Origin: Thiothrix subterranea
GTDB lineage: Bacteria; Pseudomonadota; Gammaproteobacteria; Thiotrichales; Thiotrichaceae
Reading direction: 5' to 3'
Length of the DNA stretch: 64,000 bases
Assembly: GCF_030930995.1 (NCBI RefSeq)
Contig: NZ_CP133217.1
Location: forward strand, 2,346,001 to 2,410,000
Positions 8,518 to 39,042 of the stretch are shown one piece after another; position 1 is the stretch's first letter, and each line of letters opens with the position of its first letter. The translations under genes and the position numbers were made by a program. The notes beneath the pieces were generated by a model, which saw only the letters and a list, made by a program, of their open reading frames with translations, searched no databases and was not told where the DNA came from.

Positions 8518-8745
8518 TCATGGTGATTGATCGAAATGTTTATCCAGCTTGTCGAGTACTGCCAAGCCTTCTGCGACATTGCCACGCGCTGCGCGTAGGC
8601 GGAAACGGGTTTCGGCATCCGTTTCGGTGAGAATGCGGATGGCGAATTCTTCCATCAGCTTGTTCAGACTCACGCCGCGACGTGTCGCTAAAGTTTTCAA
8701 ACGGTTGTGTTGTTCGTCAGGTAGACGGATTGTCATGGTTGCCAT
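8518..8745 (-). CDS. Ribbon-helix-helix (CopG-like) antitoxin
   Basis: The 75-residue protein starts MATMTIRLPDEQHNRLKTLA, the beta-strand and first helix of a ribbon-helix-helix DNA-binding domain, followed by RRGVSLNKLMEEF. The C-terminal 30 residues would be the toxin-binding part. It overlaps the PIN gene by one base and lies downstream of it, so the order is toxin first. It probably neutralises the PIN protein and represses the pair's promoter. Confidence 0.82.
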   Translation of the reverse strand: MATMTIRLPDEQHNRLKTLATRRGVSLNKLMEEFAIRILTETDAETRFRLRAARGNVAEGLAVLDKLDKHFDQSP

Positions 8746-11886: not shown

Positions 11887-12584
11887 GTAAAATGCAAGAC
11901 CACCACTGGCAAATCCCCCCCAACCCCGCCACTGTGCTAATGCTGGCAAAACGCCAACTCAGTGAATTCGTTTGCGATGCGGTCAATCTGGAAGGCATCA
12001 ACATGACCCTGCCAGAAGTCCAAACCCTGCTGGACGGCATCACCGTGGGCGGACACAAACTTTCCGACCAGCAAATCACCGTCAACCAAGGCAACGCATG
12101 GCGGCTATTGTTTAGCTGGCTCGAATGCGGCGAGTTCGTGGTTTCCGTCGAAAAAGCCTGCGCACTCCACGCCGTTGCGGGAAAAGAGGAGGCATTGGAA
12201 TGGGGACGCTTCCGCTCCGGTGGCGTATTCATCGCGGGAACAGACTACATGCCGCCCCCCGTCGCCGAATTGCCCGCCCGTTTCGAGGCATTGATTGCCG
12301 ACCTCACCCACATCGACGACATTTACGACCAAGCCATCCACCTTTTCCTGACGATGGCGCGTTGCCAGTTTTTCTACGACGTGAACAAGCGCATGGGGCG
12401 TTTCATGATGAACGGGCATTTGCTCCAACACGGCTACCCCGCGATCAATTTACCCGCCAAACGCCAACTGGAATTCAACACCTTGATGCTGGCGTTTTAT
12501 GATTCGGGTGATGAAACCGCGATGAATGCGTTTATGCGTTCGTGCATGGATGAGCGGGTGCTGCGGATTATGCGCGAGGCATAG
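11883..12584 (+). CDS. Fic-fold protein lacking the catalytic histidine
   Basis: Fic enzymes usually transfer AMP to target hydroxyls using an HPFx(D/E)GN(G/K)R motif. In this 233-residue protein the matching stretch is QFFYDVNKRMGR (162-173), with Gln162 in place of the His and Val167 in place of the Gly, while Asp166, Asn168, Lys169 and Arg170 remain. The upstream Fic signature WGRFRSGGVFIAG...YMPPP (107-126) and an N-terminal LEG (36-38) like the inhibitory helix are present. The ATG overlaps the stop of the Roc-COR gene (ATGA), so translation is coupled. It may be a pseudo-enzyme, a binding partner or a Fic with other chemistry. Confidence 0.75.
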   Translation: MSKMQDHHWQIPPNPATVLMLAKRQLSEFVCDAVNLEGINMTLPEVQTLLDGITVGGHKLSDQQITVNQGNAWRLLFSWLECGEFVVSVEKACALHAVAGKEEALEWGRFRSGGVFIAGTDYMPPPVAELPARFEALIADLTHIDDIYDQAIHLFLTMARCQFFYDVNKRMGRFMMNGHLLQHGYPAINLPAKRQLEFNTLMLAFYDSGDETAMNAFMRSCMDERVLRIMREA

Positions 12585-24935: not shown

Positions 24936-26327
24936 TTAATCGTATTGTTCGCGGTATTTACGCACGATATGCAGTGCCACCACGTTCAGAATCAATGTGA
25001 CAACAAACAAGCTTAAGCCAAGGGCGAATGCCGCTAAGGTTTTAGCACTGTCAAATTCTTGGTCACCTGTGAGCAATTTCACGATATATACCGTGACGGT
25101 AGTGACTGATTCCAGAGGGTTAATTGTTAAATTAGCTGCCAGACCTGCTGCCATGACCACGATCATGGTTTCACCGATAGCCCGCGAAGCCGCCAACAGA
25201 AATGCGCCAACAATTCCCGGCAATGCCGCCGGTAAGATAACCTGTTTGATGGTTTCCGACTTGGTAGCACCCATGCCGTAAGAACCGTCGCGCATTGACT
25301 GTGGCACGGCGTTGATAACGTCATCCGATAACGATGACATAAATGGAATAATCATAACCCCCATGACTAAGCCTGCTGCCAGCGCACTCTCAGAAGCTAC
25401 ACTCAAACCCAGTGATTCACCTAGGTTACGAATAAACGGGGCAACCGTGAGTGCTGCAAAGAAGCCATAAACCACGGTAGGGATACCTGCTAACACTTCC
25501 ATTGCAGGTTTCGCGTAAGCACGCAATTGGGGGCCTGCATATTCAGACAGGTAAATTGCCGACATTAGTCCTAAAGGCACGGCAACCAGCAAGGCAATAA
25601 ATGAGATCAGTAGTGTACCGACAAACAAGGGAACTGCACCGAATGCTCCAGAGCTGCCCGCCTGATCCGCCCGCATCGCGGTTTGCGGACTCCAGTGTGT
25701 CCCAAACAGAAAGTCAGTCGCTGGAACATGCCCAAAAAAGCGGTAAGATTCAAGTAAGACCGAGAAAACGATTCCCACCGTGGTCAAAATAGCGATGGAA
25801 GCGCAGCCAATCATCAGGAACTGCACTACTCGTTCCACCTGATTACGGGCGCGGGTTTTGGGTTTGACGTAGCGCAAGCCAATGAATATACCCGCGATTG
25901 CCAACGCCAATACCAAAAGGGTTTTGATGTTTTGGCTCATGGAGCGCATTTGCTGGTATTCCTCCGCCGCTGCTTTGAGGACGGGTTCAGCCGTTGCCAT
26001 TTGTGCCGGGTCGTCTGCCAGATTATGGATGCGGTTGGTGGTAAGACTCAGTTCATCAGCCGATTTGTCCTGATATTCCGCAGGCAAGTGCGACATCATG
26101 CTGGAGGTTAACAGCGGCTTTTCCAAACTTGACCACAATACAAACACCAACAGGGCGGGAATAATCGCCCAGATCACCACCAAATACCCGTAGTAACTGG
26201 GCAAGGAATGCAGGTCGTTACCGCCACGCTTCACCGGGGTGGCGAGTGCGAGAGAGCGTTTGCGGCCGATGTAATAGCTGAATGCGGCTAACACCGTTAG
26301 CGTCAGCAAGATACCCAAGGTACTCAT
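24936..26327 (-). CDS. pstC: Phosphate ABC transporter permease PstC, long form
   Basis: The other membrane subunit of the Pst importer, first gene of the pstCAB-phoUBR operon. The 463-residue protein is longer than E. coli PstC (319), with an extra N-terminal pair of helices (about 2-20 and 46-64) and an added helical region before the core. The permease motif GSYGMGATKSETIKQVILPAALPG lies near residue 350. An AGGAG ribosome site precedes the ATG. Its promoter at 26378-26411 carries a PhoB-type site. No pstS gene is attached; that gene is at 39140. Confidence 0.94.
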   Translation of the reverse strand: MSTLGILLTLTVLAAFSYYIGRKRSLALATPVKRGGNDLHSLPSYYGYLVVIWAIIPALLVFVLWSSLEKPLLTSSMMSHLPAEYQDKSADELSLTTNRIHNLADDPAQMATAEPVLKAAAEEYQQMRSMSQNIKTLLVLALAIAGIFIGLRYVKPKTRARNQVERVVQFLMIGCASIAILTTVGIVFSVLLESYRFFGHVPATDFLFGTHWSPQTAMRADQAGSSGAFGAVPLFVGTLLISFIALLVAVPLGLMSAIYLSEYAGPQLRAYAKPAMEVLAGIPTVVYGFFAALTVAPFIRNLGESLGLSVASESALAAGLVMGVMIIPFMSSLSDDVINAVPQSMRDGSYGMGATKSETIKQVILPAALPGIVGAFLLAASRAIGETMIVVMAAGLAANLTINPLESVTTVTVYIVKLLTGDQEFDSAKTLAAFALGLSLFVVTLILNVVALHIVRKYREQYD

Positions 26328-26377
26328 GAAAACTCCTGATTGGGACTGTTCGGTCAGGTTGAAAGATCGCGGCTCGG

Positions 26378-26411
26378 ATTGTAGGCGCGTAATATGACAC
26401 TATTGTTACAG
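26378..26411 (-). promoter_or_regulatory. Pho box and -10 element of the pstC operon
   Basis: Read on the minus strand, CTGTAAC and GTGTCAT stand four bases apart (26394-26411), followed by a 10-base spacer and TACAAT (26383-26378). This fits the known PhoB layout in which the repeats replace the -35 element. A weaker third repeat precedes them. Confidence 0.85.
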
Positions 26412-26424
26412 ACAGTTAATGGTT

Positions 26425-27204
26425 TTATGCGGCTTGCAATAAACCCACGTCGCTGACCGGACGGCGTTGCAAACTGCCCTGCACAAAATGGCGGTGATAG
26501 CGGGTATTGAGGTTGTTCACGTCCAGCAGGATGAAAATGTCGGCAACGTTGAAATCGGGGTCGAGGCAGGGTTCGCCCGCTACCCATGCGCCGAGTTTCA
26601 GGTAGGCTTTCAGCAGTGGCGGCATGTTGACTTTGGCGGCGGGTTGCGCGGGCAGTAAATGCATTAAAGGTTTGACGCGCAGTTCGGCAGGGGCGAGGTT
26701 GTTGGCGCGGGCTTCCTGCATAATTGCGGAGGCTTGTGCGCCGCCGTCATTCATGCTGATGCTGGCGCAACCGAACATGAAATCGACACGGTGCATTTCC
26801 ATGAATTGCGCCAAACCTAACCACAACATGCCGATGCCTGCGCCATTGCGGAAGTCGGGGTGAATGCAGGTACGCCCGATTTCAATGGCGTTGCCTTTAA
26901 GTTGCGGGAACAGGCCGCGAAGGTCAAATTCGTTTTCGGAGTAAAAACTGCCTGCTTTCCGCGCATTCGGGGTGGTGAGAATGCGGGTGGAACCAACCAC
27001 TGCATTAGTATCCGTGCGACGCACCAGCAGGTGATGGCAGTAGTCGTCGTAATGGTCACGGTCGATACCTTCACTGGCACTTTCTAGCTGTGCGCCTTGT
27101 TCTTTGGCGAAGATTTCATAGCGCAGGCGTTGCGATGCGTAGATGTCTGCTGGGGTGGTGGCGAGTTCTACTCTGAGTTGTGGTAAGTGAATAGCTGCGG
27201 TCAT
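26425..27204 (-). CDS. olsB: OlsB-type ornithine/amino-acid N-acyltransferase
   Basis: OlsB transfers a 3-hydroxyacyl group from acyl carrier protein to the alpha-amino group of ornithine, the first step to ornithine lipids, phosphorus-free membrane lipids made in phosphate starvation. The 259-residue protein is a COG3176-type GNAT with RLRYEIFAKEQGA near 22, EIGRTCIHPDFRNGAGIGMLWLGLAQFM (acetyl/acyl carrier site, about 106-133) and a C-terminal region with KAYLKLGAWVAGEPCLDPDFNVADIFILLD as in OlsB. The ATG at 27204 is chosen for its AAGGAG ribosome site nine bases upstream. A strong Pho box precedes the gene. No olsA (second acyltransferase) is seen in the window. Confidence 0.85.
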   Translation of the reverse strand: MTAAIHLPQLRVELATTPADIYASQRLRYEIFAKEQGAQLESASEGIDRDHYDDYCHHLLVRRTDTNAVVGSTRILTTPNARKAGSFYSENEFDLRGLFPQLKGNAIEIGRTCIHPDFRNGAGIGMLWLGLAQFMEMHRVDFMFGCASISMNDGGAQASAIMQEARANNLAPAELRVKPLMHLLPAQPAAKVNMPPLLKAYLKLGAWVAGEPCLDPDFNVADIFILLDVNNLNTRYHRHFVQGSLQRRPVSDVGLLQAA

Positions 27205-27222
27205 AGGTTGCACTCCTTTCAT

Positions 27223-27278
27223 AATATCGCGCCAGCTTATGAAAGGTGTGTGACAGGGGAATGACGGTTATTTTGCAG
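27223..27278 (-). promoter_or_regulatory. Multi-repeat Pho box and -10 element of olsB
   Basis: On the minus strand four 7-mers at 11-base steps read CTGCAAA, CCGTCAT, CTGTCAC and CTTTCAT (27278 to 27239), then 10 bases, then GATATT (27228-27223). The predicted transcript start near 27216 would leave the AAGGAG ribosome site at the extreme 5' end, a very short leader. Confidence 0.85.
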
Positions 27279-27398
27279 GAAGGTTAAATGTCGTTATAAG
27301 GAATTCATAAACGCCTGTGCCACCCGGCATTGATCTAGCCCAGCAAACCCGGACACCCCAAGAAGTGAGTACACTATACTCGACACTTGAGGTGAAAG

Positions 27399-27695
27399 AT
27401 GAAACCAAGCAAACCGACCACCAAGCCCTACACACGCCGTTCCGAGAGCTACAAAGCGGAAGCCCTGAAACTAGCCGATCGGCTCGGTTACACGGAAGCT
27501 GCGCGTCAATTGGGTTTACATGAATCGCAACTCTACGGCTGGCGAGCCAAACAAACTCACCAACAAACGGTTAGTAGCCGCGAACAAGAGCAATCGGCTG
27601 AAATCGCCAAACTCAAACGGGAATTGCTGGTAGCTCAAGAAGAGGTGGCTATCCTAAAAAAGGCCAGCGCGTACTTTGCGAGACAGCTCAAGTGA
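27399..27695 (+). CDS. IS3-family transposase OrfA
   Basis: A 98-residue DNA-binding subunit with a helix-turn-helix ([28 protein letters not shown], about 24-51) and a C-terminal leucine-zipper helix ([21 protein letters not shown]). It overlaps orfB by four bases (GTGA), so OrfB may be made by coupling or by frameshifting as in other IS3 elements. The start lies just inside the left terminal repeat. Confidence 0.9.
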
Positions 27696-28561
27696 AGTAC
27701 GCCTTTATTCAACAACATAGCCGTGAATTCTGCATACCCCGCCTGTGCCAAGCATTGGGTGTTGCCCGCAGCAGTTACTATGAATGGCTGGAGCGACAAT
27801 CCAACTCTCGGCAACGTGAGCAACGGCAGGCATTACTCGATACTCAGGTTGCCGCCGCCTTCCAGTCCAAGAAAGGCTGCTATGGCGCATGGCGTTTATG
27901 TAAACTATTGGCAAAGGATGGACTGCATTACAACCGCAAAACCATTGCCAACAGCTTGAAACGTCAGGGATTAGTCGCCAAGGCAGCGCGGAAGTTCAAG
28001 GCAACCACCCATAGCCGCCATTCGTTGCCAGTCTCACCCAACCTGCTGGAGCAGAACTTTACGGCGACTGCCCCAAACCAGAAATGGGTCGGTGACATCA
28101 CTTATTTGTGGACAGACGAAGGCTGGCTGTATCTGGCGGTTATCATTGACCTCTTTTCCCGCCAAGTGATTGGTTGGGCAATGGATCAACGCATGACCGC
28201 TGATTTGGTTGGTGATGCTCTGCAAATGGCACTTTGGAAACGTAAACATCCCAAGGGCGTTATTGTCCATTCCGACCGTGGCAGCCAATATTGCTCTCAC
28301 GCTTACCAACAACTGATACAACAGCACCAACTGCGCGGCAGCATGAGTGCTAAAGGGAATTGCTATGACAACGCCTGCGCCGAGAGCTTTTTCCACTCCC
28401 TGAAAGTAGAATGCATCCACGGTGAACGATTTACCACACGGGATGCCATGAAACAAACCGTTTTCGAGTACATCGAAACCGATTACAACCGTCACCGCTT
28501 GCACAGTACCTTGGGATATCTCAGCCCACTGGACTTTGAAGCACTATTCCTCACAAGTTGA
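27692..28561 (+). CDS. IS3-family transposase OrfB, DDE integrase
   Basis: The 289-residue catalytic part has an HTH_21-like N-terminus and an rve integrase core with the DDE triad: Asp in VGDITYL (about 128), Asp in HSDRGSQY (about 193) and Glu in [12 protein letters not shown] (about 229). The frame is intact to [11 protein letters not shown] at the C-terminus, so the element may still be active. Start is a GTG overlapping the orfA stop. Confidence 0.93.
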
Positions 28562-28811
28562 GGTGTCCGGGTTTAATGGGCTAGATCAAATTGTGATCTG
28601 ACCCAGTAAAAGGCAATAGAGAGCCGACAGGCGAACATTTGTTAGACCAGTAGTGTAAAACACACGAAATTGAGCGTAAACTAAACAAGTTGTGACTCGT
28701 AAAAAAGTCAATTGCCAAACTTGAAAAATAGCAAAGCAAAGAACTCAACGTTATTTGTTACACATGATTTATATTCAAGTGATACCCGATAACTAACAAG
28801 CAAAAGAAGTA

Positions 28812-30983
28812 TTGAATTTGAAAAAATATACAGTTGAAGAACTAAAGAAGTTTAGTGACGATGAAATAATTTCGTACTTAGAGGAATCATGGGGATATTC
28901 ACCCGATGAGCCAATAACTGTTATAGGTTTGTTATCTAGGTTTATTTTTGATGTGGACAAGCACATTTATCGTCTTCAGAATATTGAGTCGAAAAATGGC
29001 AATATAATAGAGTATCCAATTATTGACTTGGATTATAATTTTTTTATATTAAAAAGAGGTGTATTTGTACCACCGAGTTTTTATCGTTCAATGAGGGGTG
29101 ATATTAGTTATGAGGATGGATTAACAGTAACTTGCACATTGATATTAAACGATAAGAAGGAAAGAGAAAAACATAATAATCCTTGCGAACTTAAAGTTGA
29201 TCCTAGATCAATCGTGCCACTCAGTGAAATAGAAGATGAATATATTATTCGATCAGATGATCAGCGTATCTTGATCAAGGATACTATTGTTCAACATCAT
29301 CTCAGAAAAAACAAAGAGTTAATCGAAAAAGAAATAAAAGAAATTCATAGTGAGCGTGATTCGATAATTAATGATACACGAAAAAAGAAGGAGGATGGGC
29401 AAAAACAAATAAAAACTTTAGATCAACAGCATGGTCTACTTACAGAAAATATTAACTTACTAGAGATTTCTATAAATGAAAAGGAAGAATACAGGAAATT
29501 AATATTGGATGAAATAGAAGAGTTAAAAGTTTTACTAAAAAAGGAAGAGGCAGTCATGGGTGAAAAATTGGAAAAATTTAGGAGTTTTATCAAAGATAAA
29601 GCAGATAATCTTCTGAAGCTCGAATTTATTGAGCAAGATGAATATGATGATATTTTAATGCTAAAGAAGAAAGAAATTGAGAATGAGATTTTTATTGATT
29701 TTCATGAGGTGTTGAATGGTGATTTTGCTGATGCCATTTCACACATACAAGCTTATCTATTTAAAAATGATATTGTTTATCCGAGATATATAATCGAGGA
29801 TTTTTTTGCTTTGATTAAAACTAATGATTTGATCATATTGGCTGGGGAATCAGGCTCTGGGAAAACAAATCTGATTAAGTCATTTGCTAAAGCAGTTGGA
29901 GGAAGGTCTATAATAATTCCAGTTAAGCCAAACTGGACAAGTGCAGAGGATTTGCTGGGATATTATAATCCGTTAGAGAAAAAATACTTATCGACTCCTT
30001 TCTTGGAGGCACTTTTTGAAGCAAGCAAAAATCCTGATATTCCTTATTTTATCTGCTTGGATGAAATGAATTTAGCCAGAGTAGAATATTACTTTGCAGA
30101 TTTTTTATCTCTTCTTGAAGAGCGCAATGAAGCACCAGAAATAAAGCTGTACTCAGAAGATGAATCTTCACATGTTTTATCTGAATTCAAAAATGTACTT
30201 CATTTGATAGAGCAAACCAAGGAAAAGTACCAGAAAGGTAACATTGTTGATTTCGTGAGTATTTTACAAGATGAGGAGGTAAGTAACGAATTAAAAAGGG
30301 TTTTTGGATTTGGTGATAAAGATTCGCTTATCAAGTATCACTCGGATCTAAGAAGAATGATAAGTGGAATATTAAACACACCATCATCCATCATTTTACC
30401 CAAGAATGTCAGAATTATTGGTGCTATTAATATTGATGAAACCACGCATTATCTCTCTCCAAAAATACTAGATAGAGCACATATCATAAAATTTGATAGT
30501 CCTTTGCTAAGTAACTGGGATGCAATAGAACAAGAAGTTAATTTAAATGAAAGCTCAAATTTTAAATTGAAGTTCAAAATTGAAGATTTTGGAGTAAGAA
30601 CGCCTTACCCAGCGTTTGATATGAAAGATAATTTCGTCAAAGTTTTAGTTGAGTTTAGTAGAAAATATTTTAATCCTCTTGGTATTGAGTTTGGGATGAG
30701 AACAATCAGGCAAGGACTAGGTTATAGAGAAATTTTTTTAAAAATGAATAATAACGAAGACTTGGTTTTCAATAATTTTATTATTCATAAGATACTTCCA
30801 AAAATGACTTTTTATGCAAATAAATCTGACAAAAAAGATATTTTAGCTAAATTTAAAAGTAAAATTGATGATTTATTAAAAGATAAAATTGATCCTACTC
30901 AAGGAAAAATTGCAGTAGAAGAGTTGGAGTCTCTCGTTAAAAATTCCGAGTCTAATGAGAATATTGTAAATTATTGGGCATGA
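28812..30983 (+). CDS. McrB-like AAA+ protein with N-terminal coiled coil
   Basis: This 723-residue protein opens a three-gene, very AT-rich operon. Residues about 165-250 form a charged coiled coil (EKEIKEIHSERDSI onward). The AAA+ domain has Walker A GESGSGKTN (345-353), Walker B FICLDEMNLARVEYYFADFLSLLE (about 414-437), and sensor-like VRIIGAINIDETTHYLSPKILDRA (about 533-556), the layout of the McrB branch of AAA+ GTPases. The DEMNLARVE box is McrB-typical. The N-terminal 160 residues match no domain I know and may recognise the target. The next gene, six bases downstream, encodes an McrC-like nuclease. The combination resembles McrBC-derived coiled-coil conflict systems; target and trigger are unknown. 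Confidence 0.82.
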   Translation: MNLKKYTVEELKKFSDDEIISYLEESWGYSPDEPITVIGLLSRFIFDVDKHIYRLQNIESKNGNIIEYPIIDLDYNFFILKRGVFVPPSFYRSMRGDISYEDGLTVTCTLILNDKKEREKHNNPCELKVDPRSIVPLSEIEDEYIIRSDDQRILIKDTIVQHHLRKNKELIEKEIKEIHSERDSIINDTRKKKEDGQKQIKTLDQQHGLLTENINLLEISINEKEEYRKLILDEIEELKVLLKKEEAVMGEKLEKFRSFIKDKADNLLKLEFIEQDEYDDILMLKKKEIENEIFIDFHEVLNGDFADAISHIQAYLFKNDIVYPRYIIEDFFALIKTNDLIILAGESGSGKTNLIKSFAKAVGGRSIIIPVKPNWTSAEDLLGYYNPLEKKYLSTPFLEALFEASKNPDIPYFICLDEMNLARVEYYFADFLSLLEERNEAPEIKLYSEDESSHVLSEFKNVLHLIEQTKEKYQKGNIVDFVSILQDEEVSNELKRVFGFGDKDSLIKYHSDLRRMISGILNTPSSIILPKNVRIIGAINIDETTHYLSPKILDRAHIIKFDSPLLSNWDAIEQEVNLNESSNFKLKFKIEDFGVRTPYPAFDMKDNFVKVLVEFSRKYFNPLGIEFGMRTIRQGLGYREIFLKMNNNEDLVFNNFIIHKILPKMTFYANKSDKKDILAKFKSKIDDLLKDKIDPTQGKIAVEELESLVKNSESNENIVNYWA

Positions 30984-30989
30984 TAAGTT

Positions 30990-33900
30990 ATGAAATCTGT
31001 TTTTGAAGTAAAATATATTTCTATTAAGTGGGATGATTTGAATTCTATAAGAAATATAAGGGAGTCTACTTTCCCAATAAAAATTGATATTGTAGATGAA
31101 GATAACTATTTTTTAGAACTACAGACATACACAAGAATTGAAAATGAAGAAGATGGGCAAGTAGCATTTCATATTCATGATGATTCTTCCGATGTCGTTC
31201 CAGTATTAATTGATGCTTCAAACAATCAAATTCCATTGTTAAAAATTCAAAATCCACAAACTAAAAAAAATTGGTGGATTGAAAATGGCTCATGGAATAA
31301 AAAACGTAAGTATAGAGAATCAAACTTATGGAATCATGTCGGTAGAACTCAAGTCAAATTTGGATCAATTCGATGTGATATTCATGTCCGAGCCATCAGC
31401 TTCTCTGTGGAAGAGTTAAGTGAATACTTGAACGATTTTAAAAATGATTTTTGGGCATTAATCTATAAACCAAACAGTTTCGTGAGTGGTGATGCTAAAC
31501 AAAAAGAGATCAAATTTCTTAATGAAAAAACATTGAACTTAATCTCAAAATTTATTGATTATACGACCAAAATATTGGCAAATCCAAAAAAAGAATTAAA
31601 AGAAGTCCAAACATTAAAAGATAGAAAAGAAGTTAGACCTGTTGCTAAAACATACATGGAGATAGCCACAAAAGGTATAAGTAAAAAATTAACAAGTAGA
31701 GACTACGCTGAGTCCTATGATGTGGCAGAAAATAGATACATTTGCTACATAACGAATAAAGTTTATAGCATGAGTTTACAGATTTTAAATGCACTTGATC
31801 ATGAATATAAGTTTATAGCAAACAACCAATTGTATCAAAAAAAGAGACTCGATTTATTCTCAAAAACTAAAAAAATTAACAAAAGAGTTTTTGAAAATGA
31901 TTTGAAACAACTAGAGGAAATGATAAAGAAAGATAAAGACAATTTACTTCAGTCTCTTAAAGGACAAGATCAAGATGATGATTTGTTAACGATAAAAAAT
32001 AAAATTGATGAAATTAAGCAGTTTCCAATCAAAATAAAAGAAGCATTAACAAGTCAGCCAAAAATAAATAATGATATGGTGAAAATTCAAACATTAACAA
32101 TAAGGCTCGAAAGAAAACAAAATGATTATTTGGGCAAGGTACAGTTTAAAGCTTCTGTAAGTTATATGAATGATGAGATTTTTACTTCAGAATCGAATAG
32201 TATAATAATCATTTCTTTTGCTAAAATTTTATTTGATGGAGTTTTTGAAGAAGGCGATAGTTACACTATATCAGGCGTTGTTAATGAATCAAAATATCCA
32301 ACAAGGTATAAAAATATCATACATAATATCGAATTTGTAAATATTTTAGATATAAAAAAATCGAATATTGTTGAATATGAATATCGTGTAATTACAGTGA
32401 GATTAAAGAAAAATAAATTTGAATCATATGGGAAGCATATTGTTTTTAATGGCAATGTAATGACAGACGATGGACTTTGGTTTCAACATAAAGAAAATGA
32501 CTTTTATAGTTTTAAGTTCCATAAAGATATTTTCCCCAATGCTTTTAGGGAAAACATCACGTATCAGATAACATGCTATATATCAAGAAATATAAGAAAA
32601 TGGTCGAAAAATAACAGGGAAGGATATATACATGAAATAATATTTGAATATATAGAAGATATAAAAATTATAGAATCTGTTCTTGAAAAAAAACTGATAA
32701 AAGAAAAAGAAACATTCTTGAGGTTAGAAAGCTTGGGCTGGCAAATGGATATGAGTCCACAAGAGTTAGTTAAGCAAAATCATGAAAAGGACACAATCGA
32801 TAAATCATTAGATGATTTAACAAAACAAAATACTGAAATCACTAAACATAAAAAAGAGCTGCTGAAAAAAATAACGTTAATAAAAAAACTAATAGATAGA
32901 TTCAAGGCATTAAAGATTAAAGAAGATTGTTCTTTTCCTAATTCCATGACATTTATTCAAAATCCAAATTACCAAGGTAGCAAAAAAGTATTTACCAGCT
33001 TCCTTGAAACAATTGGTATTGAAGAGGATATGTTTAAAAGTCTACTCTTGGTTGATCAGATTGGGCTTATTGATTTGCCAGCCTTATATGAAAAATGGTG
33101 TTTGCTTCAGATTATAAAGGTTTTAATAGAAGAATATCATTTTATACCTGACCAAAATTGGAAAAAAACTTTAGTGAGTCAAGTTTTAACAATCAAATAT
33201 AATGTGAAAATGAATTTCTTTAATGATGTTATCGCTAGAGACGTAATATTAGGATATGAGGAAGAATTGAAAAGTAAAAAAAGACCTGACTTTGTTTTGA
33301 TGGTTAAGTCAAAAAGAACAGAAACCACAAAAAAATTTATTATGGATGCAAAATTCAGAGAAAATGTAGATATTAGAGGTTTGATGCAAGAGCTTTATCA
33401 CGATAAAAACTATAGTGAAGATCGAAAAAACAAGGTATTTATATTGCATCCAGATGTTAATAATAAAATTGATAATTTTAGCAATCCCCAAAGCTGGGCG
33501 GATCAATCGTATTATGGTGAAACCCAATTAATGAATTATGACTGGGATAAAGATGATCCAGAATGTGAGTACGTTGAGGTGCTACCAAATCATAGGTATG
33601 GTGCGATACTCTTGTCTCCTTTTGATCGAAGCGCTATAAGTGAGGGCGGATACCTAGATAATTTAAAACGACTTATTGCTATGTTTTTGCAATATGGAAT
33701 GGAAGACAATAAAAAATTGGCATCAAATGATGGAAAAATCGATTCAATGACAAAAGAAAATCCATTTTGTACGTTATGTGGAAGTAGTAATCTATATATC
33801 AAAAGATTTACTCCTCGATCTGGAGTGGGATACGGGTATGAAGTAACTTGTAAGGATTGCACACATCACATGGAGTATAATTATTGCAGTGGATGTAAAA

Positions 33901-34013
33901 ATCGAATAATTAAAAATGGGAGATATTGGTCGTATCATGCAACAAAGCCAATAGATCAATTTAACATTAAGTGTCCTCATTGTGGTGATTTTTTATTAGA
34001 GGAAAGTAGATGA
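30990..34013 (+). CDS. McrC-like DUF2357 nuclease with C-terminal zinc ribbons
   Basis: A 1,007-residue protein. The middle region has helical and coiled parts and a beta-rich insertion (about 365-560). Near residues 765-790 is a PD-(D/E)xK nuclease core: RPDFVLMV (Asp about 767) and FIMDAKFR (Asp about 786, Lys about 788), followed by DIRGLMQELYHDK, as in DUF2357/McrC-type nucleases. The last 90 residues have Cys pairs CTLC, CKDC, CSGC and CPHC, that is two zinc ribbons. It would be the effector driven by the McrB-like ATPase. Its stop overlaps the next start by four bases. Confidence 0.78.
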   Translation: MKSVFEVKYISIKWDDLNSIRNIRESTFPIKIDIVDEDNYFLELQTYTRIENEEDGQVAFHIHDDSSDVVPVLIDASNNQIPLLKIQNPQTKKNWWIENGSWNKKRKYRESNLWNHVGRTQVKFGSIRCDIHVRAISFSVEELSEYLNDFKNDFWALIYKPNSFVSGDAKQKEIKFLNEKTLNLISKFIDYTTKILANPKKELKEVQTLKDRKEVRPVAKTYMEIATKGISKKLTSRDYAESYDVAENRYICYITNKVYSMSLQILNALDHEYKFIANNQLYQKKRLDLFSKTKKINKRVFENDLKQLEEMIKKDKDNLLQSLKGQDQDDDLLTIKNKIDEIKQFPIKIKEALTSQPKINNDMVKIQTLTIRLERKQNDYLGKVQFKASVSYMNDEIFTSESNSIIIISFAKILFDGVFEEGDSYTISGVVNESKYPTRYKNIIHNIEFVNILDIKKSNIVEYEYRVITVRLKKNKFESYGKHIVFNGNVMTDDGLWFQHKENDFYSFKFHKDIFPNAFRENITYQITCYISRNIRKWSKNNREGYIHEIIFEYIEDIKIIESVLEKKLIKEKETFLRLESLGWQMDMSPQELVKQNHEKDTIDKSLDDLTKQNTEITKHKKELLKKITLIKKLIDRFKALKIKEDCSFPNSMTFIQNPNYQGSKKVFTSFLETIGIEEDMFKSLLLVDQIGLIDLPALYEKWCLLQIIKVLIEEYHFIPDQNWKKTLVSQVLTIKYNVKMNFFNDVIARDVILGYEEELKSKKRPDFVLMVKSKRTETTKKFIMDAKFRENVDIRGLMQELYHDKNYSEDRKNKVFILHPDVNNKIDNFSNPQSWADQSYYGETQLMNYDWDKDDPECEYVEVLPNHRYGAILLSPFDRSAISEGGYLDNLKRLIAMFLQYGMEDNKKLASNDGKIDSMTKENPFCTLCGSSNLYIKRFTPRSGVGYGYEVTCKDCTHHMEYNYCSGCKNRIIKNGRYWSYHATKPIDQFNIKCPHCGDFLLEESR

Positions 34014-35992
34014 ATTATACTTTATATATAGATGAATCAGGAGATTTTGAATCTCAAAAAGGACAGTGGGTATTATCTGGTATATTGTTTTCAGATAGTT
34101 ATGAAAATTGTGAGAAACACCTTCTAAATAAACTGGATGGAATGCCTAGGGAGCTAAACCTTACATCAATTCGAGATTTCCATCTTACTGAATTTAGAAG
34201 GGATTTTGATCATGATAAAGCTGTGGATATGGCAAAAAGAGTTCTTGATAGATTAGAATTACTGCCATTTGATTTTCATGGTTTGGTCACTATTAATTAT
34301 TCAAAAATATCACTATCTCATAGAGAAAAAACATACAGATTGATGCTGGCAGATTTACTAGCCCTTTGTGAAACAGTAATACCCGATTATCAAATAATAG
34401 AAAATTTAGATTTGGTTGTTGCAACAAGAACTATTGATGGAGAGCTTCAAACTAATATTAGTAATATCAAAGAGGACATCATCAATACACTACCAATGGC
34501 ATTAGAAGTTGATTTGGCTACTAAAGGTATAGTAGATTTAATTGGCAAGCACATTAAAGTTAAGATGGATTATGCTAATAGATCATGGGGTCTGGTTTGC
34601 GCGGATTTTTTAGCTAATTTAAGCTACCACAACAGAAAAGAAAAAGAAAAGTTATATTTGCAAGAATTGGAAAAGAATGGGCGATATACGGTTTTTGAAT
34701 CTTTTGGAGATTTTGAAAGCAGAAGAGCTAGTGTGGCAGAAAGAGATAATGATCATGTTTTATCATTATATAGATGGTTGATGATATTAACAAAAAATGA
34801 TGCTAATGAAAAAGCAAAAAATACAATTCAAAGATTGCTGGCTAAAATTTTTTATAAAAGAGGAACTTCTGGAAGTAAAATATCATTTGAGGCATTAATT
34901 GAACGATTATGGAGGAGTGGCAACGCAATTAATAATTATGGTGCATTGAAAATAACTCTTTCGTTATTTGAACATGAGCTGAAGGAGTTTTTTCGGATAA
35001 ATAAGATTTCGAGTTATCAACAGTATTTATTTAGATTGAGAAACTTAATGTTGATTGTTGATAATCATTTGGGCAATGTTGATGGAGCATTAGAATTAGC
35101 GGTTAAACAACATGAGTATGTTAGTCAACTAGCATCTAATCCTGAGCATTTTCAGATGATACTTGATTTTAAAGCCATTGAAATTGAAATCTATATCAAT
35201 GGATTGGAATTTACAAAGGCACTAAATTTGGCATTTGAATATTCGCGTATGATTTCAAATTATAAAGAAGTGTGGCAGTTATTGGTTGATGAGGAGTCTG
35301 ATAATTTTGAGTCTTCAAGAGCACATATAAAATCCACAATGATTTTATTCAGAGCAAATATTCTCAATATGGCTGTAAACAATTATTCTATATCCGATCA
35401 AGTTATGAAAGATATTAATAATCTTGAAGCAGTCTTGTCTAATAAACTCGACATTAGTAGGTATTCAAATTATAAAATAATGTTGTTGCTAAAACAAAAA
35501 AAATCAAATGTTGCTGTTGGCTTCTTTGAAAAAATCGTGGATGAAAATCCTAATGTGATATTGAATTATTTTGATTTTTTTTGGTTTTTGAAAGCGATAA
35601 ACGATACATTGTTAACAAGAGAGCAAATCAATTTTCCAAAAATAACTAAAATTATAAATTCTCAGCTATCGTATATAGATCTAAATACTTCTGGACATCC
35701 TATGGATCTCATTTTAAGAGAGTTGGCGTTATTTGAATTCCAGTCCAATAATAAAAGCAAAGCTTTAAAATACATTAGAAAAAGCAAAAATCTATTTACC
35801 CTTGAAAGTTCTAATGTTTCTAAATGGTTAAATGCTCTAATTGATATACATGAAGACTATTTTAAGGGCAGTGTGGGGTGTTTTCATAAGTATTTTAAAG
35901 AAATTGATGCGGAATGTGATTTTATTGAAAGTGTTTCGATTAACTCAATTGATTCACTTTTGCAGAAAGTTCGATTTTATACTCCATATTGA
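34010..35992 (+). CDS. DUF3800 protein with a long helical-repeat C-terminus
   Basis: The 660-residue protein starts MNYTLYIDESGDFE, the hallmark of DUF3800 (a predicted RNase H-like fold often found in phage-defence contexts), with conserved Asp8, Glu9 and Asp12 and a later DYANRSWGLVCADFLAN segment (about 184-200) that supplies another acidic residue. From about 260 the protein is all-helical with TPR-like pairs (LELAVKQHEYVSQLA, KALNLAFEYSRM, KALKYIRKSKNLF). It is translationally coupled to the nuclease gene (ATGA overlap), so it is an integral third component. A role as second nuclease or as sensor is inference. Confidence 0.75.
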   Translation: MNYTLYIDESGDFESQKGQWVLSGILFSDSYENCEKHLLNKLDGMPRELNLTSIRDFHLTEFRRDFDHDKAVDMAKRVLDRLELLPFDFHGLVTINYSKISLSHREKTYRLMLADLLALCETVIPDYQIIENLDLVVATRTIDGELQTNISNIKEDIINTLPMALEVDLATKGIVDLIGKHIKVKMDYANRSWGLVCADFLANLSYHNRKEKEKLYLQELEKNGRYTVFESFGDFESRRASVAERDNDHVLSLYRWLMILTKNDANEKAKNTIQRLLAKIFYKRGTSGSKISFEALIERLWRSGNAINNYGALKITLSLFEHELKEFFRINKISSYQQYLFRLRNLMLIVDNHLGNVDGALELAVKQHEYVSQLASNPEHFQMILDFKAIEIEIYINGLEFTKALNLAFEYSRMISNYKEVWQLLVDEESDNFESSRAHIKSTMILFRANILNMAVNNYSISDQVMKDINNLEAVLSNKLDISRYSNYKIMLLLKQKKSNVAVGFFEKIVDENPNVILNYFDFFWFLKAINDTLLTREQINFPKITKIINSQLSYIDLNTSGHPMDLILRELALFEFQSNNKSKALKYIRKSKNLFTLESSNVSKWLNALIDIHEDYFKGSVGCFHKYFKEIDAECDFIESVSINSIDSLLQKVRFYTPY

Positions 35993-36020
35993 CATTAAAT
36001 ACTTATTTGTCCCGCTATTT

Positions 36021-36215
36021 CTATCGTAACGTGTCAAGAGAACTTTTCAGCACGTAACGGATTTGTTCAAAAGAAACGGTAGGAAAGTCTTCCAAGAAAT
36101 CTTTCACGCTGTCGCCTGCCAGCAGGTAATCAAACAGGTTGCGCACGGGGACGCGGGTTGCTTTGAATACTAATGCCCCACCTAAAATCGCAGGGTCACT
36201 GACTACCATTGACAT
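36021..36215 (-). CDS. DUF433 antitoxin-like protein, apparently without its toxin
   Basis: The 64-residue protein shows the DUF433 winged-helix pattern: DPAILGGALVFKATRVPVRNLFDYLLAG, then DFLEDFPTVSFEQIRYVL. The ATG at 36215 has a GGAGG ribosome site; the open frame upstream to 36293 is not needed. DUF433 proteins usually precede a DUF5615 PIN-like toxin gene. Here the next bases downstream (leftward) are the DUF3800 gene on the other strand, so the partner is missing. Confidence 0.8.
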   Translation of the reverse strand: MSMVVSDPAILGGALVFKATRVPVRNLFDYLLAGDSVKDFLEDFPTVSFEQIRYVLKSSLDTLR

Positions 36216-36286
36216 AAAAACCTCCGAATACCAAAAGTCTGTCATGATGTTAGCACATCCCCAGTGATGCGAAACCCATAACACAA

Positions 36287-36331
36287 CGGTCATATAACCG
36301 TCATTTTGCCGTCATTCCCAAGCCTTAGCCT
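36287..36331 (+). promoter_or_regulatory. Pho box and -10 element of btaA
   Basis: Three repeats CGGTCAT, CCGTCAT and CCGTCAT at 11-base steps (36287-36315), then 10 bases and the hexamer TAGCCT (36326-36331), a poor but correctly placed -10. A further CTGTCAT lies at 36239, out of phase. Confidence 0.8.
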
Positions 36332-36366
36332 CAAGCCCACGATTAGATTTTGTTAGCGAGATTTTC

Positions 36367-37581
36367 ATGGCAGGTATTTCCGACGCAATGCGCGATGCTG
36401 TGCATCAACATGCCCCCACGTCTTTGATGGGGATGCAGCAACGTTTGTTCAGCTTTTGGTTCAATAGCTTCATCTACAACCAGATTTGGGAAGATCCCAC
36501 AGTTGACATGCAAGCCTTGCAATTGACCTCAGAAAGCCGCGTACTGACAATTGCTTCGGGCGGCTGTAACGTGTTGAATTACCTGACCGCAAGCCCTGCG
36601 CATATCACCGCGATTGACCTGAACCCCTACCATTTGTCGTTGACGCGCTTGAAGTTAAAGGCATTGAAATACCTGCCGGATCACGCCACCTTCTACGATT
36701 TCTTTGGTTACGCTGACCGCGACACCAATCCGGCGCATTACGAGCAATACATCCGCCCGCATTTGGATGATGCGCTGGATGGATTCTGGCAAGGCCGCAG
36801 CATTCTGGGGCAAAAGCGCATTCATATGTTCCGTGACGGGCTGTATCGGCAAACGCGCTTCGGCTATTTCATGCGCTTCTTGCACTGGATTGCCCGCCGC
36901 ACCAATTACCACCCCGAAAAGCTCCTCACCGCCACCAGTTTGTACGAACAGAAAGCGATTTTCCAGCAACACATTGCGCCGTTCTTCGACAATAAACTGG
37001 TGAAGTTTTTGGGCAAATTGCCGATGTCGGTGTTCAGCCTTGGCATTCCGCCACAGCAATACAAGGCGATGAAGGAACAGGGCAATCTGATTGAGCAATA
37101 CCGCGAGCGTGTCGAACGCTTGGCGTGTGATACCCCGATTCAGACTAACTATTTTGCATGGCAAGGTTTTAGCCACAGCTATGACCACGAAAAGCGTCAA
37201 GCGATTCCTGATTACCTGAAAGCTGAAAACTACGACGCTATCCACAGCCAGTTGGGCAAGGTCGATACGCACCTCGGTTCCATGATCGACTTCCTTGAGC
37301 AGCAAGCTCCGCACAGTTACGACCGTTTCGTGTTCCTCGATGCGCAAGACTGGATGACGGATGAAGTCCTCACCCAGTTGTGGACGCAAGTTGCCCGCGT
37401 GGGCAAGCCGGGAACGCGGATTATCTTCCGTACCGCCGCCGCCGAATCACCGTTGGAAACTGCGTTGCCCGCCGAATTACGTAGCCAGTTTGTGTACGAG
37501 GCTGAGCTTTCCGCGCAATTATTCCTGCAAGACCGTTCGGCGATTTACGGTGGTTTCCACCTCTACCGCAAGGCCGATTGA
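36367..37581 (+). CDS. btaA: BtaA: S-adenosylmethionine:diacylglycerol 3-amino-3-carboxypropyltransferase
   Basis: BtaA moves the homoserine moiety of S-adenosylmethionine onto diacylglycerol, the first step of betaine lipid (DGTS) synthesis at the membrane. The 404-residue protein is a DUF3419 member with QIWEDPTVDMQAL near 36, the SAM-binding TIASGGCNVLNYL (about 61-73) and AIDLNPYHLSL (about 81-91). BtaB and a PlcP-type phospholipase follow in one operon with overlapping ends. A three-repeat Pho box precedes it. Length and neighbours make the call strong. Confidence 0.93.
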   Translation: MAGISDAMRDAVHQHAPTSLMGMQQRLFSFWFNSFIYNQIWEDPTVDMQALQLTSESRVLTIASGGCNVLNYLTASPAHITAIDLNPYHLSLTRLKLKALKYLPDHATFYDFFGYADRDTNPAHYEQYIRPHLDDALDGFWQGRSILGQKRIHMFRDGLYRQTRFGYFMRFLHWIARRTNYHPEKLLTATSLYEQKAIFQQHIAPFFDNKLVKFLGKLPMSVFSLGIPPQQYKAMKEQGNLIEQYRERVERLACDTPIQTNYFAWQGFSHSYDHEKRQAIPDYLKAENYDAIHSQLGKVDTHLGSMIDFLEQQAPHSYDRFVFLDAQDWMTDEVLTQLWTQVARVGKPGTRIIFRTAAAESPLETALPAELRSQFVYEAELSAQLFLQDRSAIYGGFHLYRKAD

Positions 37582-37583
37582 CA

Positions 37584-38285
37584 ATGGATGCCGCACAAAA
37601 AATGGATCAGCAGTACCGTTACCAGCGGTACGTTTACGACTGGTCGCGCAAGTATTATTTACTGGGGCGAGATGCCTTGCTGGCGGAAATTCCGTTGCAG
37701 CCGGGCGAAACTGTGCTGGAAATCGGCTGCGGCACGGGGCGTAATTTAACCAAGCTGGCTTACCGGCAACCGCAAGCCAAACTCTACGGCATGGATGCGT
37801 CCGCAATGATGCTGGATACTGCCCGTGACAATTTGCGTAACACCTTGTATGCGCAACAAATTACCTTGCAGCAAGGCTTGGCGGGGCAGGTCGATCACAC
37901 CACCTTCGGGCTGGAGAAACCGTTTGATCACCTTGTGTTTTCGTATGTGCTGTCGATGATCCCCGGTTGGCAGGATGCGCTCGAACATGCCTTAAGCATC
38001 CTCAAACCCGGTGGTTGTTTGCATGTGGTGGATTTTTCCGACCAGCAAACCATGCCCGCCTGGTGCCGCAAACTGCTGTTGCAGTGGTTGGATTGGTTCA
38101 ACGTCCACCCTGATCCGGCAGTCCCGGCGTATTTGGAGCAAATGGCAGCCCGTCAGCAATATGACCAGTTGCGTATCCGCCACCTGAGTGGGCGTTACGC
38201 AGTGCTTGCGCATTACCAGAAAGGGGGGATTCCCAATGACCATCAACCAGAACTTCCGCAAATATCGCAGTATCTGGATTTCTGA
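37584..38285 (+). CDS. btaB: BtaB: diacylglycerylhomoserine N-methyltransferase
   Basis: BtaB trimethylates the amino group of diacylglycerylhomoserine to give the betaine lipid DGTS. The 233-residue class I methyltransferase has motif I VLEIGCGTGRNL (about 44-55), then YGMDASAMML and FSYVLSMIPGW. Its ATG lies two bases past the btaA stop; a TTG at 37578 is in frame. Its 3' end overlaps the plcP start by 50 bases. Confidence 0.92.
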   Translation: MDAAQKMDQQYRYQRYVYDWSRKYYLLGRDALLAEIPLQPGETVLEIGCGTGRNLTKLAYRQPQAKLYGMDASAMMLDTARDNLRNTLYAQQITLQQGLAGQVDHTTFGLEKPFDHLVFSYVLSMIPGWQDALEHALSILKPGGCLHVVDFSDQQTMPAWCRKLLLQWLDWFNVHPDPAVPAYLEQMAARQQYDQLRIRHLSGRYAVLAHYQKGGIPNDHQPELPQISQYLDF

Positions 38286-39042
38286 TACGCACCTCGGTTC
38301 ACGCGGGTGCAAAGCCGAGTTTCTGCTCGATTTCCTGCAACACAATCAAGCCGATCATTTGTATTTGGTCGGCGATATTATCGACGGTTGGGCATTACGC
38401 AAACGTTGGTATTGGGATACGTTCCATGACCAGATTTTGCACTTGCTGTTTGAACGGGCGCAACGCGGCACGCAAGTGACCTACGTGAGTGGTAATCACG
38501 ATGAATTTTTGCGTCCGTTTATCCATCACCGCGTTACGGCGATCAGTTTGGAAGACGAAGTGGTGCATACCACGGCAGATGGGCGCAAGTTTTTGGTGCT
38601 GCATGGCGACCAGTTCGATGGCGTAATGCAGTTTACGCGGTGGCTGGCGATCCTCGGCGACTGGATTTACGAGCGTTTGCTGGTGGTGAACAATGTGTAC
38701 AACCGTTTGCGGCGGCGCATGGGGTATCCGTATTGGTCACTCTCGGCGTATCTCAAGCACAAAACCAAGTCGGCGGTGAATTTTATCTCGGCATTTGAGG
38801 AAACGCTGGCGAAAGAGGCGAAGAAGCGTCAGTTGGATGGGATTATTTGCGGGCATATCCACCATGCTGAAATCCGCGATATTGACGGGGTATTGTATTG
38901 CAACGACGGCGATTGGGTGGAAAGTTGCACCGCGCTGGTGGAAGAGTGGGATGGGAGTTTGCAGGTGGTGCGTTGGGTAGAAGCCCGAAGTCGGTCTGCT
39001 GACTTCGACTACGCTCAGCCAGCACCACAGTTCGCGCCCTGA
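38236..39042 (+). CDS. PlcP-type metallophosphoesterase (phospholipase C of lipid remodelling)
   Basis: PlcP-type enzymes cut phospholipids to diacylglycerol in phosphate stress. The 268-residue protein has the calcineurin-like motifs SDTHLGS (about 16), GDIIDGW (about 46), SGNHDE (about 84), LHGDQFD (about 122) and CGHIHHAEI (about 206), and is of the COG2908 type often named UDP-2,3-diacylglucosamine diphosphatase. Because a true lpxH is at 14505 and this gene is fused into the btaAB operon, the PlcP role fits better. The last 20 residues (from about EARSRSADFD) come from an inverted repeat and look added. A ribosome site AAGGGGGGA precedes the ATG. Confidence 0.82.
   Translation: MTINQNFRKYRSIWISDTHLGSRGCKAEFLLDFLQHNQADHLYLVGDIIDGWALRKRWYWDTFHDQILHLLFERAQRGTQVTYVSGNHDEFLRPFIHHRVTAISLEDEVVHTTADGRKFLVLHGDQFDGVMQFTRWLAILGDWIYERLLVVNNVYNRLRRRMGYPYWSLSAYLKHKTKSAVNFISAFEETLAKEAKKRQLDGIICGHIHHAEIRDIDGVLYCNDGDWVESCTALVEEWDGSLQVVRWVEARSRSADFDYAQPAPQFAP

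What the first reader, a model, noticed from the sequence alone, without database searches (positions are those of the whole stretch)
28589..35992. AT-rich three-gene operon: McrB-like AAA+, DUF2357 zinc-ribbon nuclease, DUF3800-helical-repeat protein
Three genes in one direction with a 6-base gap and an ATGA overlap form a single unit. Seen: McrB-type Walker A/B with DEMNLARVE, a PD-(D/E)xK core RPDF...DAKF with two zinc ribbons, and a YIDESGD DUF3800 start fused to helical repeats. The base composition is much richer in A and T than the flanks and an IS3 element abuts it. McrBC-type modules restrict modified DNA, and coiled-coil McrBC relatives (CoCoNuT-type) have been proposed to act on RNA or ribonucleoprotein. 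The N-terminal 160 residues of the first gene and the coupling to a DUF3800-repeat protein are not something I can match to a described system.
Basis: partly seen in the sequence, partly recalled or inferred. Interest (0 to 1): 0.85.

Follow-up and report, generated by a model that had tools for sequence, protein, structure and literature searches.

The report
McrBC-like defence operon with extra nuclease
A mobile three-gene bacterial operon, probably an anti-phage system, that pairs a known two-gene McrBC relative with an extra putative nuclease; the same trio turned up in two other bacterial groups.

Summary
Genes 1 and 2 (28812-30983, 30990-34013) are the PADLOC candidate system PDC-M26 (E 5e-265 and 3e-212). 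Their anatomy (NxD motif, probable coiled coil, long insert between Walker B and NxD, PD-(D/E)xK core, four CxxC pairs) matches the published Type I-A CoCoNuT, so this half is known. Gene 3 (34010-35992) is a remote DUF3800 protein followed by helical repeats, probably TPR-like. Published Type I-A systems are described as two genes only, and the main text of the CoCoNuT paper never mentions DUF3800. I found the same three-gene order in a Sulfurimonas MAG and a Spirochaetes MAG, where gene 3 is the DUF3800 domain alone. All 3 gene-3 loci found sit right behind cnuBC; 6 of 6 other cnuBC loci read in full lack gene 3. Its DUF3800 domain is better conserved across phyla (82% and 71%) than its partner CnuC (about 40%). 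The AT-rich unit is inserted: a congener has the site empty. Best reading: a CoCoNuT variant carrying a second, probably RNA-directed nuclease, like the TPR-DUF3800 protein reported beside Cas12a2. That activity is inferred; my structure models were too poor to confirm an RNase H fold.

The parts
27330..28589 (+). IS3-family element next to the operon (two transposase ORFs 27399-27695 and 27692-28561)
28590..28811 (+). non-coding leader, 35.6% G+C; no Rfam family over its cut-off, no DUF3800-associated RNA motif listed
28812..30983 (+). gene 1: CnuB/McrB-like NxD-motif AAA+ GTPase (PDC-M26A)
28812..29276 (+). gene 1 residues 1-155: N-terminal domain with five main strands, probably the cold-shock-like OB fold
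   Evidence: strands at 35-129 plus two short ones at 145-155 in a model with block pLDDT 45-78 there; no Pfam match; identification by analogy with PMC11090510
29277..29612 (+). gene 1 residues 156-267: predicted long helix, probable coiled coil
   Evidence: block pLDDT 34-61; 0 Pro and 3 Gly in residues 156-300
29844..29867 (+). Walker A GESGSGKT
30060..30086 (+). Walker B DEMNLARVE
30156..30377 (+). insert between Walker B and NxD, predicted helical (Type I-A hallmark)
   Evidence: helices in low-confidence model; gap-free, constant length in 9 of 9 CnuB aligned
30429..30437 (+). NxD motif (Asn-Ile-Asp)
30990..34013 (+). gene 2: CnuC/McrC-like nuclease subunit (PDC-M26B)
   Evidence: PADLOC PDLC04548 E 2.6e-212
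32088..32357 (+). gene 2 module copy 1 (residues 367-456) in the variable insert region
   Evidence: match to copy 2 at E 3e-5, 28% identity over 94 columns
32385..32666 (+). gene 2 module copy 2 (residues 466-559); two copies also in L005, one in L006, L003 and L004
   Evidence: alignments
33084..33407 (+). PD-(D/E)xK nuclease core, RPDF...DAKF
   Evidence: Pfam PDDEXK_7 E 1.1e-7, 32.5 bits over a cut-off of 22.1; PDF and DAK motifs in 9 of 9 CnuC aligned
33768..33983 (+). four CxxC pairs, zinc-ribbon-like C-terminus
   Evidence: four pairs in 9 of 9 CnuC
34010..35992 (+). gene 3: DUF3800 domain plus helical repeats
34010..34783 (+). gene 3 residues 1-258: DUF3800 domain with conserved D8-E9 (YIDESGD) and D199 (ADFLA)
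   Evidence: PF12686 matched in 3 of 3 members, best E 0.0028; 82% and 71% identical to L005 and L006
34796..35989 (+). gene 3 residues 263-660: helical repeats, absent from the Spirochaetes copy
   Evidence: all-helical model, block pLDDT 56-83 at 311-420 and 491-590, under 50 elsewhere; absent in L006
27292..36278 (.). stretch absent from the congener G1219 (empty site, flanks 26 bases apart)

Best explanation
It is a horizontally moved, probably anti-phage operon: a Type I-A CoCoNuT core (NxD-motif McrB-like GTPase CnuB plus McrC-like nuclease CnuC) that has gained a third gene coding for a DUF3800, RNase-H-like nuclease on a helical-repeat arm. Proposed working: the OB/coiled-coil front of CnuB and the modules inserted in CnuC recognise an infection-linked nucleic acid, more likely RNA or RNA-protein than modified DNA; this lets the CnuB ring with CnuC docked on it hydrolyse GTP and move along the target; CnuC's PD-(D/E)xK domain cuts; and the gene 3 protein, docked through its helical repeats, makes the second cut, most likely on RNA or an RNA:DNA hybrid. 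Shown here: gene content, order, homology, motifs, insertion and recurrence in three lineages. Inferred from PMC11090510: GTPase mechanics and RNA preference. Inferred by me: the role of gene 3. My split: about 0.9 that genes 1-2 are a Type I-A CoCoNuT core, about 0.8 that gene 3 is a working part of the system, about 0.35 that gene 3 cleaves RNA.
For: PDC-M26A/B over nearly full length. NxD motif with constant spacing from Walker B in 9 of 9 CnuB aligned, as printed for Type I-A (PMC11090510 sections 7 and 8). PD-(D/E)xK motifs in 9 of 9 CnuC. Same three-gene order in L005 and L006; 3 of 3 gene-3 loci found lie directly behind cnuC, with an overlap (window) or gaps of 21 and 2 nt. DUF3800 domain 82%/71% identical to L005/L006 while CnuC is 42%/40% and CnuB residues 1-175 are 39%/35%: constraint on gene 3, fast change in the presumed sensor parts. 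In L005 a 300-nt, 94% direct repeat flanks the block that holds the trio plus a PDC-S02 gene. Empty site in a congener. A TPR-DUF3800 protein is reported beside Cas12a2 with a predicted RNase H fold (PMC10910872, passages), and a DUF3800-family RNase H-fold nuclease in some VI-F and V-A2 loci (PMC12669027, passages).
Against: No defence or nuclease activity was measured for this operon or, in the texts I saw, for any Type I-A CoCoNuT. The DUF3800 match is below the gathering score; profile-profile comparison with 5 DUF3800 proteins aligned only 42 columns around ADFLA (63% probability); a profile of those 5 ranked the L006 copy first but at E 0.15, with the L005 copy (0.56) mixed among chance frames. 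The gene 3 model is unusable in that domain (mean pLDDT 44.7). The N-terminal domain of CnuB had no Pfam match. 0 of 172 plasmid records with a CnuC match carry gene 3, so the core exists without it. The repeats of gene 3 are less conserved than its DUF3800 domain (37-72% per 50-residue block from 251 on against 76-86%). L005 and L006 are MAG contigs, and both were fetched by gene 3 itself.
Confidence: 0.55

Rival explanations
1. A plain two-gene Type I-A CoCoNuT (PDC-M26) with an unrelated passenger gene behind it that happens to be co-transcribed.
For: 6 of 6 other cnuBC loci read in full have no gene 3; 0 of 172 plasmid records with a CnuC match have it.
Against: The same pairing in three distant lineages, ATGA overlap in the window, the three gene-3 carriers on one side of a split in both the CnuB and CnuC trees (local support 0.965 and 0.973, 9 sequences), and a DUF3800 domain conserved more strongly than CnuC. 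No gene 3 relative away from cnuBC turned up, apart from one 19-bit repeat-only match.
Confidence: 0.15
2. A DNA-directed Type IV restriction system: CnuBC cuts modified phage DNA like McrBC and the DUF3800 protein is a DNA or R-loop nuclease that finishes the job.
For: CnuC keeps an active-type PD-(D/E)xK core; RNase-H-like folds include DNA resolvases and transposases (general knowledge); McrBC cuts DNA (general knowledge).
Against: No methylcytosine-binding domain was listed for gene 1 by Pfam; the group it belongs to is predicted to act on RNA, though many members might also act on DNA (PMC11090510 abstract); the DUF3800 partners reported elsewhere are RNA-guided effectors.
Confidence: 0.2
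3. Gene 3 is a control part: it trims or removes the trigger or restrains CnuBC until infection, rather than attacking the phage.
For: A well conserved third component next to a potentially self-harmful nuclease fits a safety device (inference); DUF3800 genes have been linked to putative non-coding RNAs (PMC10910872 passage, citing Weinberg 2017).
Against: Two-gene relatives exist without it; no such RNA family was listed at window 27000-37000, L005 or L006.
Confidence: 0.1

Closest known systems
Type I-A CoCoNuT (CnuB-CnuC), Bell et al. 2024, PMC11090510
   Same: NxD GTPase, probable coiled coil, long insert between Walker B and NxD, CnuC with variable insert, PD-(D/E)xK and zinc-binding-type pairs
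   Different: That type is described as CnuB and CnuC only; here a third DUF3800-repeat gene overlaps cnuC. CnuC of the window and L005 has a tandem duplication of the inserted module; in the passages I saw, a second CSD is mentioned for some Type III-A CnuC
PADLOC candidate PDC-M26 (M26A + M26B)
   Same: Both genes match over nearly their whole length
   Different: No PDC-M26 model matches gene 3; 'PDC-M26' occurs in no paper of the library searched
TPR-DUF3800 protein beside Cas12a2 (PMC10910872) and DUF3800 nuclease of some VI-F and V-A2 loci (PMC12669027)
   Same: DUF3800, in the first case with TPR repeats, next to a nucleic-acid-triggered immune effector
   Different: The partner here is a GTPase-nuclease pair and not a CRISPR effector; none of their sequences was available to compare, so kinship beyond the domain names is untested
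Classical McrBC of E. coli K-12
   Same: AAA+ GTPase plus McrC-type nuclease; McrB is among the fold matches
   Different: NxD instead of NxxD, probable coiled coil in place of a methylcytosine-binding domain, extra domains in CnuC, third gene

Membership tests
Type I-A CoCoNuT | McrB-like GTPase with NxD in place of NxxD | tested here: met
   Asn540-Ile-Asp542 in the window; NxD in 9 of 9 aligned CnuB
Type I-A CoCoNuT | helical insert between Walker B and NxD of CnuB | tested here: met
   123-residue spacing, no gaps in 9 of 9; helices at 449-522 in a low-confidence model
Type I-A CoCoNuT | long coiled coil fused before the GTPase | tested here: met
   predicted helix 156-267 (block pLDDT 34-61) and 0 Pro in residues 156-300; no dedicated coiled-coil predictor was run
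Type I-A CoCoNuT | cold-shock-like OB fold at the CnuB N-terminus | tested here: inconclusive
   five main strands in residues 35-129; no Pfam match; fold matches covered residues 302-564
Type I-A CoCoNuT | CnuC with DUF2357 region carrying inserts | tested here: inconclusive
   PF09823 matched in 3 of 5 CnuC scanned, best E 8.1e-5, not in the window copy itself; variable insert region visible
Type I-A CoCoNuT | active-type PD-(D/E)xK nuclease and zinc-binding CxxC pairs in CnuC | tested here: met
   PDDEXK_7 over its cut-off; PDF and DAK motifs in 9 of 9, four CxxC in 9 of 9
Type I-A CoCoNuT | Ig-like beta-sandwich at the CnuC N-terminus | not tested
Type I-A CoCoNuT | system made of CnuB and CnuC only | tested here: not met
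   third gene present here and in L005, L006; hence filed as a variant, not as a plain member
Type I-A CoCoNuT | place in the published GTPase tree | not testable with these tools
   the reference sequences of PMC11090510 were not available
DUF3800 (PF12686) | score over the Pfam gathering cut-off | tested here: not met
   window copy 15.1 against 21 bits, span 2-147 of 149; 3 of 3 members match the family, best E 0.0028, bits of the other two not shown
DUF3800 (PF12686) | N-terminal D-E and C-terminal D motif | tested here: met
   D8-E9-S10 and A198-D199 invariant in the trio; D-E near the start and a D near the end invariant in 5 DUF3800 relatives aligned
DUF3800 (PF12686) | RNase H-type fold | tested here: inconclusive
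   model of that domain unusable, block pLDDT 19-50
CRISPR-linked DUF3800 proteins | CRISPR array or Cas effector nearby | tested here: not met
   no cas-like neighbour seen by eye among the ORFs at 26000-39000; no CRISPR repeat over the Rfam cut-off at 27000-37000 (one match far below it, 23 against 48 bits)

The most novel reading that the evidence does not exclude
DUF3800-plus-repeat proteins are a portable second-strike RNA nuclease that has been joined independently to RNA-guided CRISPR effectors (Cas12a2, VI-F) and to an RNA-sensing GTPase system (Type I-A CoCoNuT), so this operon gives a CRISPR-free handle on what DUF3800 does and a direct test of the untested claim that CoCoNuTs target RNA.
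Probability: 0.25. Interest if true: 0.8.

Novelty: new variant of a known kind. Interest (0 to 1): 0.5.

Why it matters
CoCoNuTs have been predicted, not shown, to act on RNA. A natural Type I-A version that carries its own conserved, nuclease-like third gene offers a compact three-gene set in which that prediction can be tested by removing one part at a time. It also extends DUF3800 proteins, which in the papers I could search are reported as immune accessories only beside class 2 CRISPR effectors, to an unrelated immune system, which narrows down what they might do.

Tried and rejected
Rejected: that the first gene is unlike anything described (settles it). Not supported: that the operon is phage-borne. 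Viral-contig scans with gene 3, the CnuC alignment and the DUF3800 alignment gave no relatives (pattern-based scans), nor did phage records with gene 2. Not supported: a DUF3800-linked structured RNA at the loci (window 27000-37000: three weak matches, none of that kind; L005 and L006: none at E 1 or better). Rejected: gene 3 hidden in the two-gene relatives; profile searches of six-frame translations of the 6 loci gave nothing better than E 0.94 with the full gene 3 profile.

Led nowhere: the gene 3 structure model (mean pLDDT 44.7); its PDB matches, mostly proteins I know as TPR or similar repeat proteins, start at E 0.0098, so only 'helical repeats' can be said. The gene 1 model (mean pLDDT 54.5) served only for the AAA+ part: the rows cover residues 302-564, so the N-terminal domain was barely tested. 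A five-sequence DUF3800 profile did not clearly separate the known gene 3 copies from background (best E 0.15). Gene-3-like proteins in 200 and 198 genomes of the phyla of L005 and L006: the two known copies and one 19-bit repeat-only match. A weak PtuB1 match of the stretch after the DUF3800 domain in both full-length gene 3 copies (E about 0.002) is unexplained and not used. Promoter-like sites were no more common than in shuffles (36 against a mean of 41.5; terminator-like 5 against 2.3), so I name no promoter or terminator.

Sampling limits: the collection scan for gene 3 uses exact peptide patterns and finds close relatives only; L005 and L006 came in through gene 3, so 3 of 9 loci is not a frequency. 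Gene 3 was not sought by protein in the E. coli genomes. Dropped before counts: partial M26A matches G068, G189, G303 and the contig-edge fragment in G1086 were not read as loci; of the 172 plasmid records and 327 I read four with flanks. L045 (partial), L047 (same score as L046) and L042 (near-identical to L041) were left out of the DUF3800 alignment.


Full report
What is in the sequence. The window holds three + strand genes at 28812-30983, 30990-34013 and 34010-35992, with a 6-base gap and an ATGA overlap. Their G+C is 29-31% against 52% for the window outside 27330-36293; none of 209 overlapping 7.4-kb stretches clear of the operon is under 48.9%. An IS3-family element with 40-nt inverted repeats ends at 28589, directly before them (the family name is recalled).

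It is an insertion. In one congener (G1219, locus L035) the sequences that match window positions up to 27291 and from 36279 on lie 26 bases apart: the IS3 element, the operon and a small DUF433 gene are absent there. In a second congener (L036) the matches to 27183 and from 36355 on lie 223 bases apart. In the other three loci fetched (L033, L034, L037) only the right flank matches; L034 holds just 1.6 kb beyond it.

Bell et al. 2024 (PMC11090510; outline with abstract, sections 7 and 8, and found passages seen) describe a branch of McrBC systems with NxD GTPases fused to coiled coils. Type I-A is set apart by a helical insert between Walker B and NxD; Type I CnuB usually has a cold-shock-like OB fold at the N-terminus, and Type I-A CnuC an Ig-like domain, coiled-coil and OB inserts in DUF2357, PD-(D/E)xK and zinc ribbon. 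The NxD motif, the insert length, the nuclease motifs and the CxxC pairs fit; the coiled coil fits by a weak test; the OB fold, the DUF2357 match of the window copy and the Ig-like domain remain open. So residues 1-155 of gene 1 are most likely the OB domain usual for Type I CnuB.

Gene 3 is the addition. Bell et al. state that Type I-A consists of CnuB and CnuC only, and their main text holds DUF3800 0 times and 'RNase H' 0 times (their supplements were not open to me). Gene 3 of the window matches DUF3800 weakly (15.1 bits, cut-off 21) but over nearly the whole profile (positions 2-147 of 149); all 3 members of the gene 3 alignment match this family, best E 0.0028. Profile-profile comparison with 5 ordinary DUF3800 proteins aligned 42 columns around the second motif (63% probability, E 6.8e-5 for one comparison; a control pair gave 0.1%). 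Against it, a sequence profile of those 5 put the L006 copy first but only at E 0.15. The rest of gene 3 is all-helical in a partly low-confidence model, and its best fold matches, none under E 0.009, are mostly repeat proteins of the TPR kind (the kind partly recalled).

The trio recurs. A scan of a collection with one genome for each of 84,980 species found 2 relatives of gene 3 among 26 pattern matches. L005 (Sulfurimonas MAG) has the full three-gene order with a 656-aa gene 3; L006 (Spirochaetes MAG) has the order with a 262-aa gene 3 that stops after the DUF3800 domain; its contig ends 123 bases later and, by eye, none of three frames there resembles the repeats. So 3 of 3 gene-3 loci known to me sit directly behind cnuBC. 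In plasmids 172 records match gene 2 and none matches gene 3 at E 1e-3. In the CnuB and CnuC trees of these 9 loci the three gene-3 carriers fall on one side of a split with local support 0.965 and 0.973, which fits a single gain, though 9 sequences and no outgroup cannot prove it.

The core itself is uncommon in the genomes sampled. Full-length M26A was found in 2 of 369 genomes of the class, the own genome included (5 of 369 at E 1e-30 or better, three of them partial), and, at E 1e-60, only in the seed genome itself in 200 and 247 genomes of the phyla of L005 and L006. The M26B model matched 4 of 398 genomes of the own phylum at E 1e-20 or better, the own genome included and one of them a fragment at a contig edge. 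In E. coli 25 of 5426 genomes carry a close relative of the Klebsiella form, 23 of 26 places on plasmids.

Where the change is. Between the window and L005, residues 1-175 of CnuB are 39% identical and its GTPase part (301-723) 71%; the middle of CnuC (301-640) is 28% and its ends 48-50%; the DUF3800 domain of gene 3 is 82% (71% to L006), its repeats mostly 50-72% per block and about 40% at the end. Fast change in the presumed sensor parts and slow change in the motor and in the DUF3800 domain is what one would expect if gene 3 is a working enzyme and not a passenger (inference). CnuC of the window and L005 also carries two tandem copies (E 3e-5 between the window copies) of a module present once in L006, L003 and L004.

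How it most likely works. Established in print: McrB-type rings hydrolyse GTP with McrC docked (from passages of PMC11090510, and general knowledge). Predicted in print: CoCoNuTs act on RNA or translation-linked RNA-protein (abstract); a TPR-DUF3800 protein with a predicted RNase H fold occurs beside a sub-branch of Cas12a2 (PMC10910872, passages), and a DUF3800-family RNase H-fold nuclease in some VI-F and V-A2 loci (PMC12669027, passages). My inference: in this variant the CnuBC motor senses the trigger and moves along the target, CnuC cuts, and the gene 3 protein docks by its repeats and cuts RNA or hybrids. The single-domain gene 3 of L006 suggests that the repeats are not essential in every version, if that contig is right.

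What is new and what is not. Known: the two-gene core, as PDC-M26 and as Type I-A CoCoNuT. Not found in print: the coupling to DUF3800. Searches run for this: PDC-M26 (0 papers), CoCoNuTs (1,088 papers hold the word, mostly the fruit, 20 listed), DUF3800 (11 papers, 10 listed), DUF2357 (5 papers), DUF3800 with defence (2 papers, both CRISPR), CoCoNuT with restriction and phage (29 papers, 15 listed), McrBC with CoCoNuT from 2024 on (4 papers) and two of DUF3800, McrB, McrC and RNase H from 2020 on (104 papers, 12 listed, none of these with DUF3800). Of papers other than those named above I saw listings, short passages (PMC8989522, PMC11701678, PMC12707154) or an outline with abstract (PMC10602043). 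Subscription papers and database annotations outside these were not searched. I therefore call it a new variant of a known kind.

Noticed in passing
L005:3225-3524 and 12168-12467: A 300-nt direct repeat (94%) from the end of an acetyltransferase-like gene flanks the block with the trio and a PDC-S02 gene (DUF1016 type, recalled), as if the whole island moved in as a unit.
   Followed up: partly
window:32088-32666: Tandem duplication of an about 95-residue module inside the CnuC insert of the window and L005; one copy in L006, L003 and L004.
   Followed up: partly
L042:1492-2331 (own genome, contig C1): A second DUF3800 protein in the same genome lacks the first conserved acidic residue of the DES motif that a near-identical congener copy (L041) keeps.
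   Followed up: no
window:36021-36293: Small DUF433 gene on the minus strand (Pfam E 8e-15) at the right edge of the inserted stretch, with G+C nearer the host's (46%).
   Followed up: no
L003:1-10187: In Pseudoalteromonas the cnuBC pair starts 2 bases behind a Type I restriction-modification operon, with a viperin-family gene annotated upstream.
   Followed up: no
AP018322.1 (Nostoc sp. HK-01), 8062-9036: A stretch 28% identical to the GTPase of gene 1 lies under a feature annotated as RNA-dependent DNA polymerase.
   Followed up: no
window:34784-34939: Gene 3 residues 259-310 (259-328 in L005) weakly match the PtuB1 (Septu) model, E about 0.002 in both full-length copies; unexplained.
   Followed up: no
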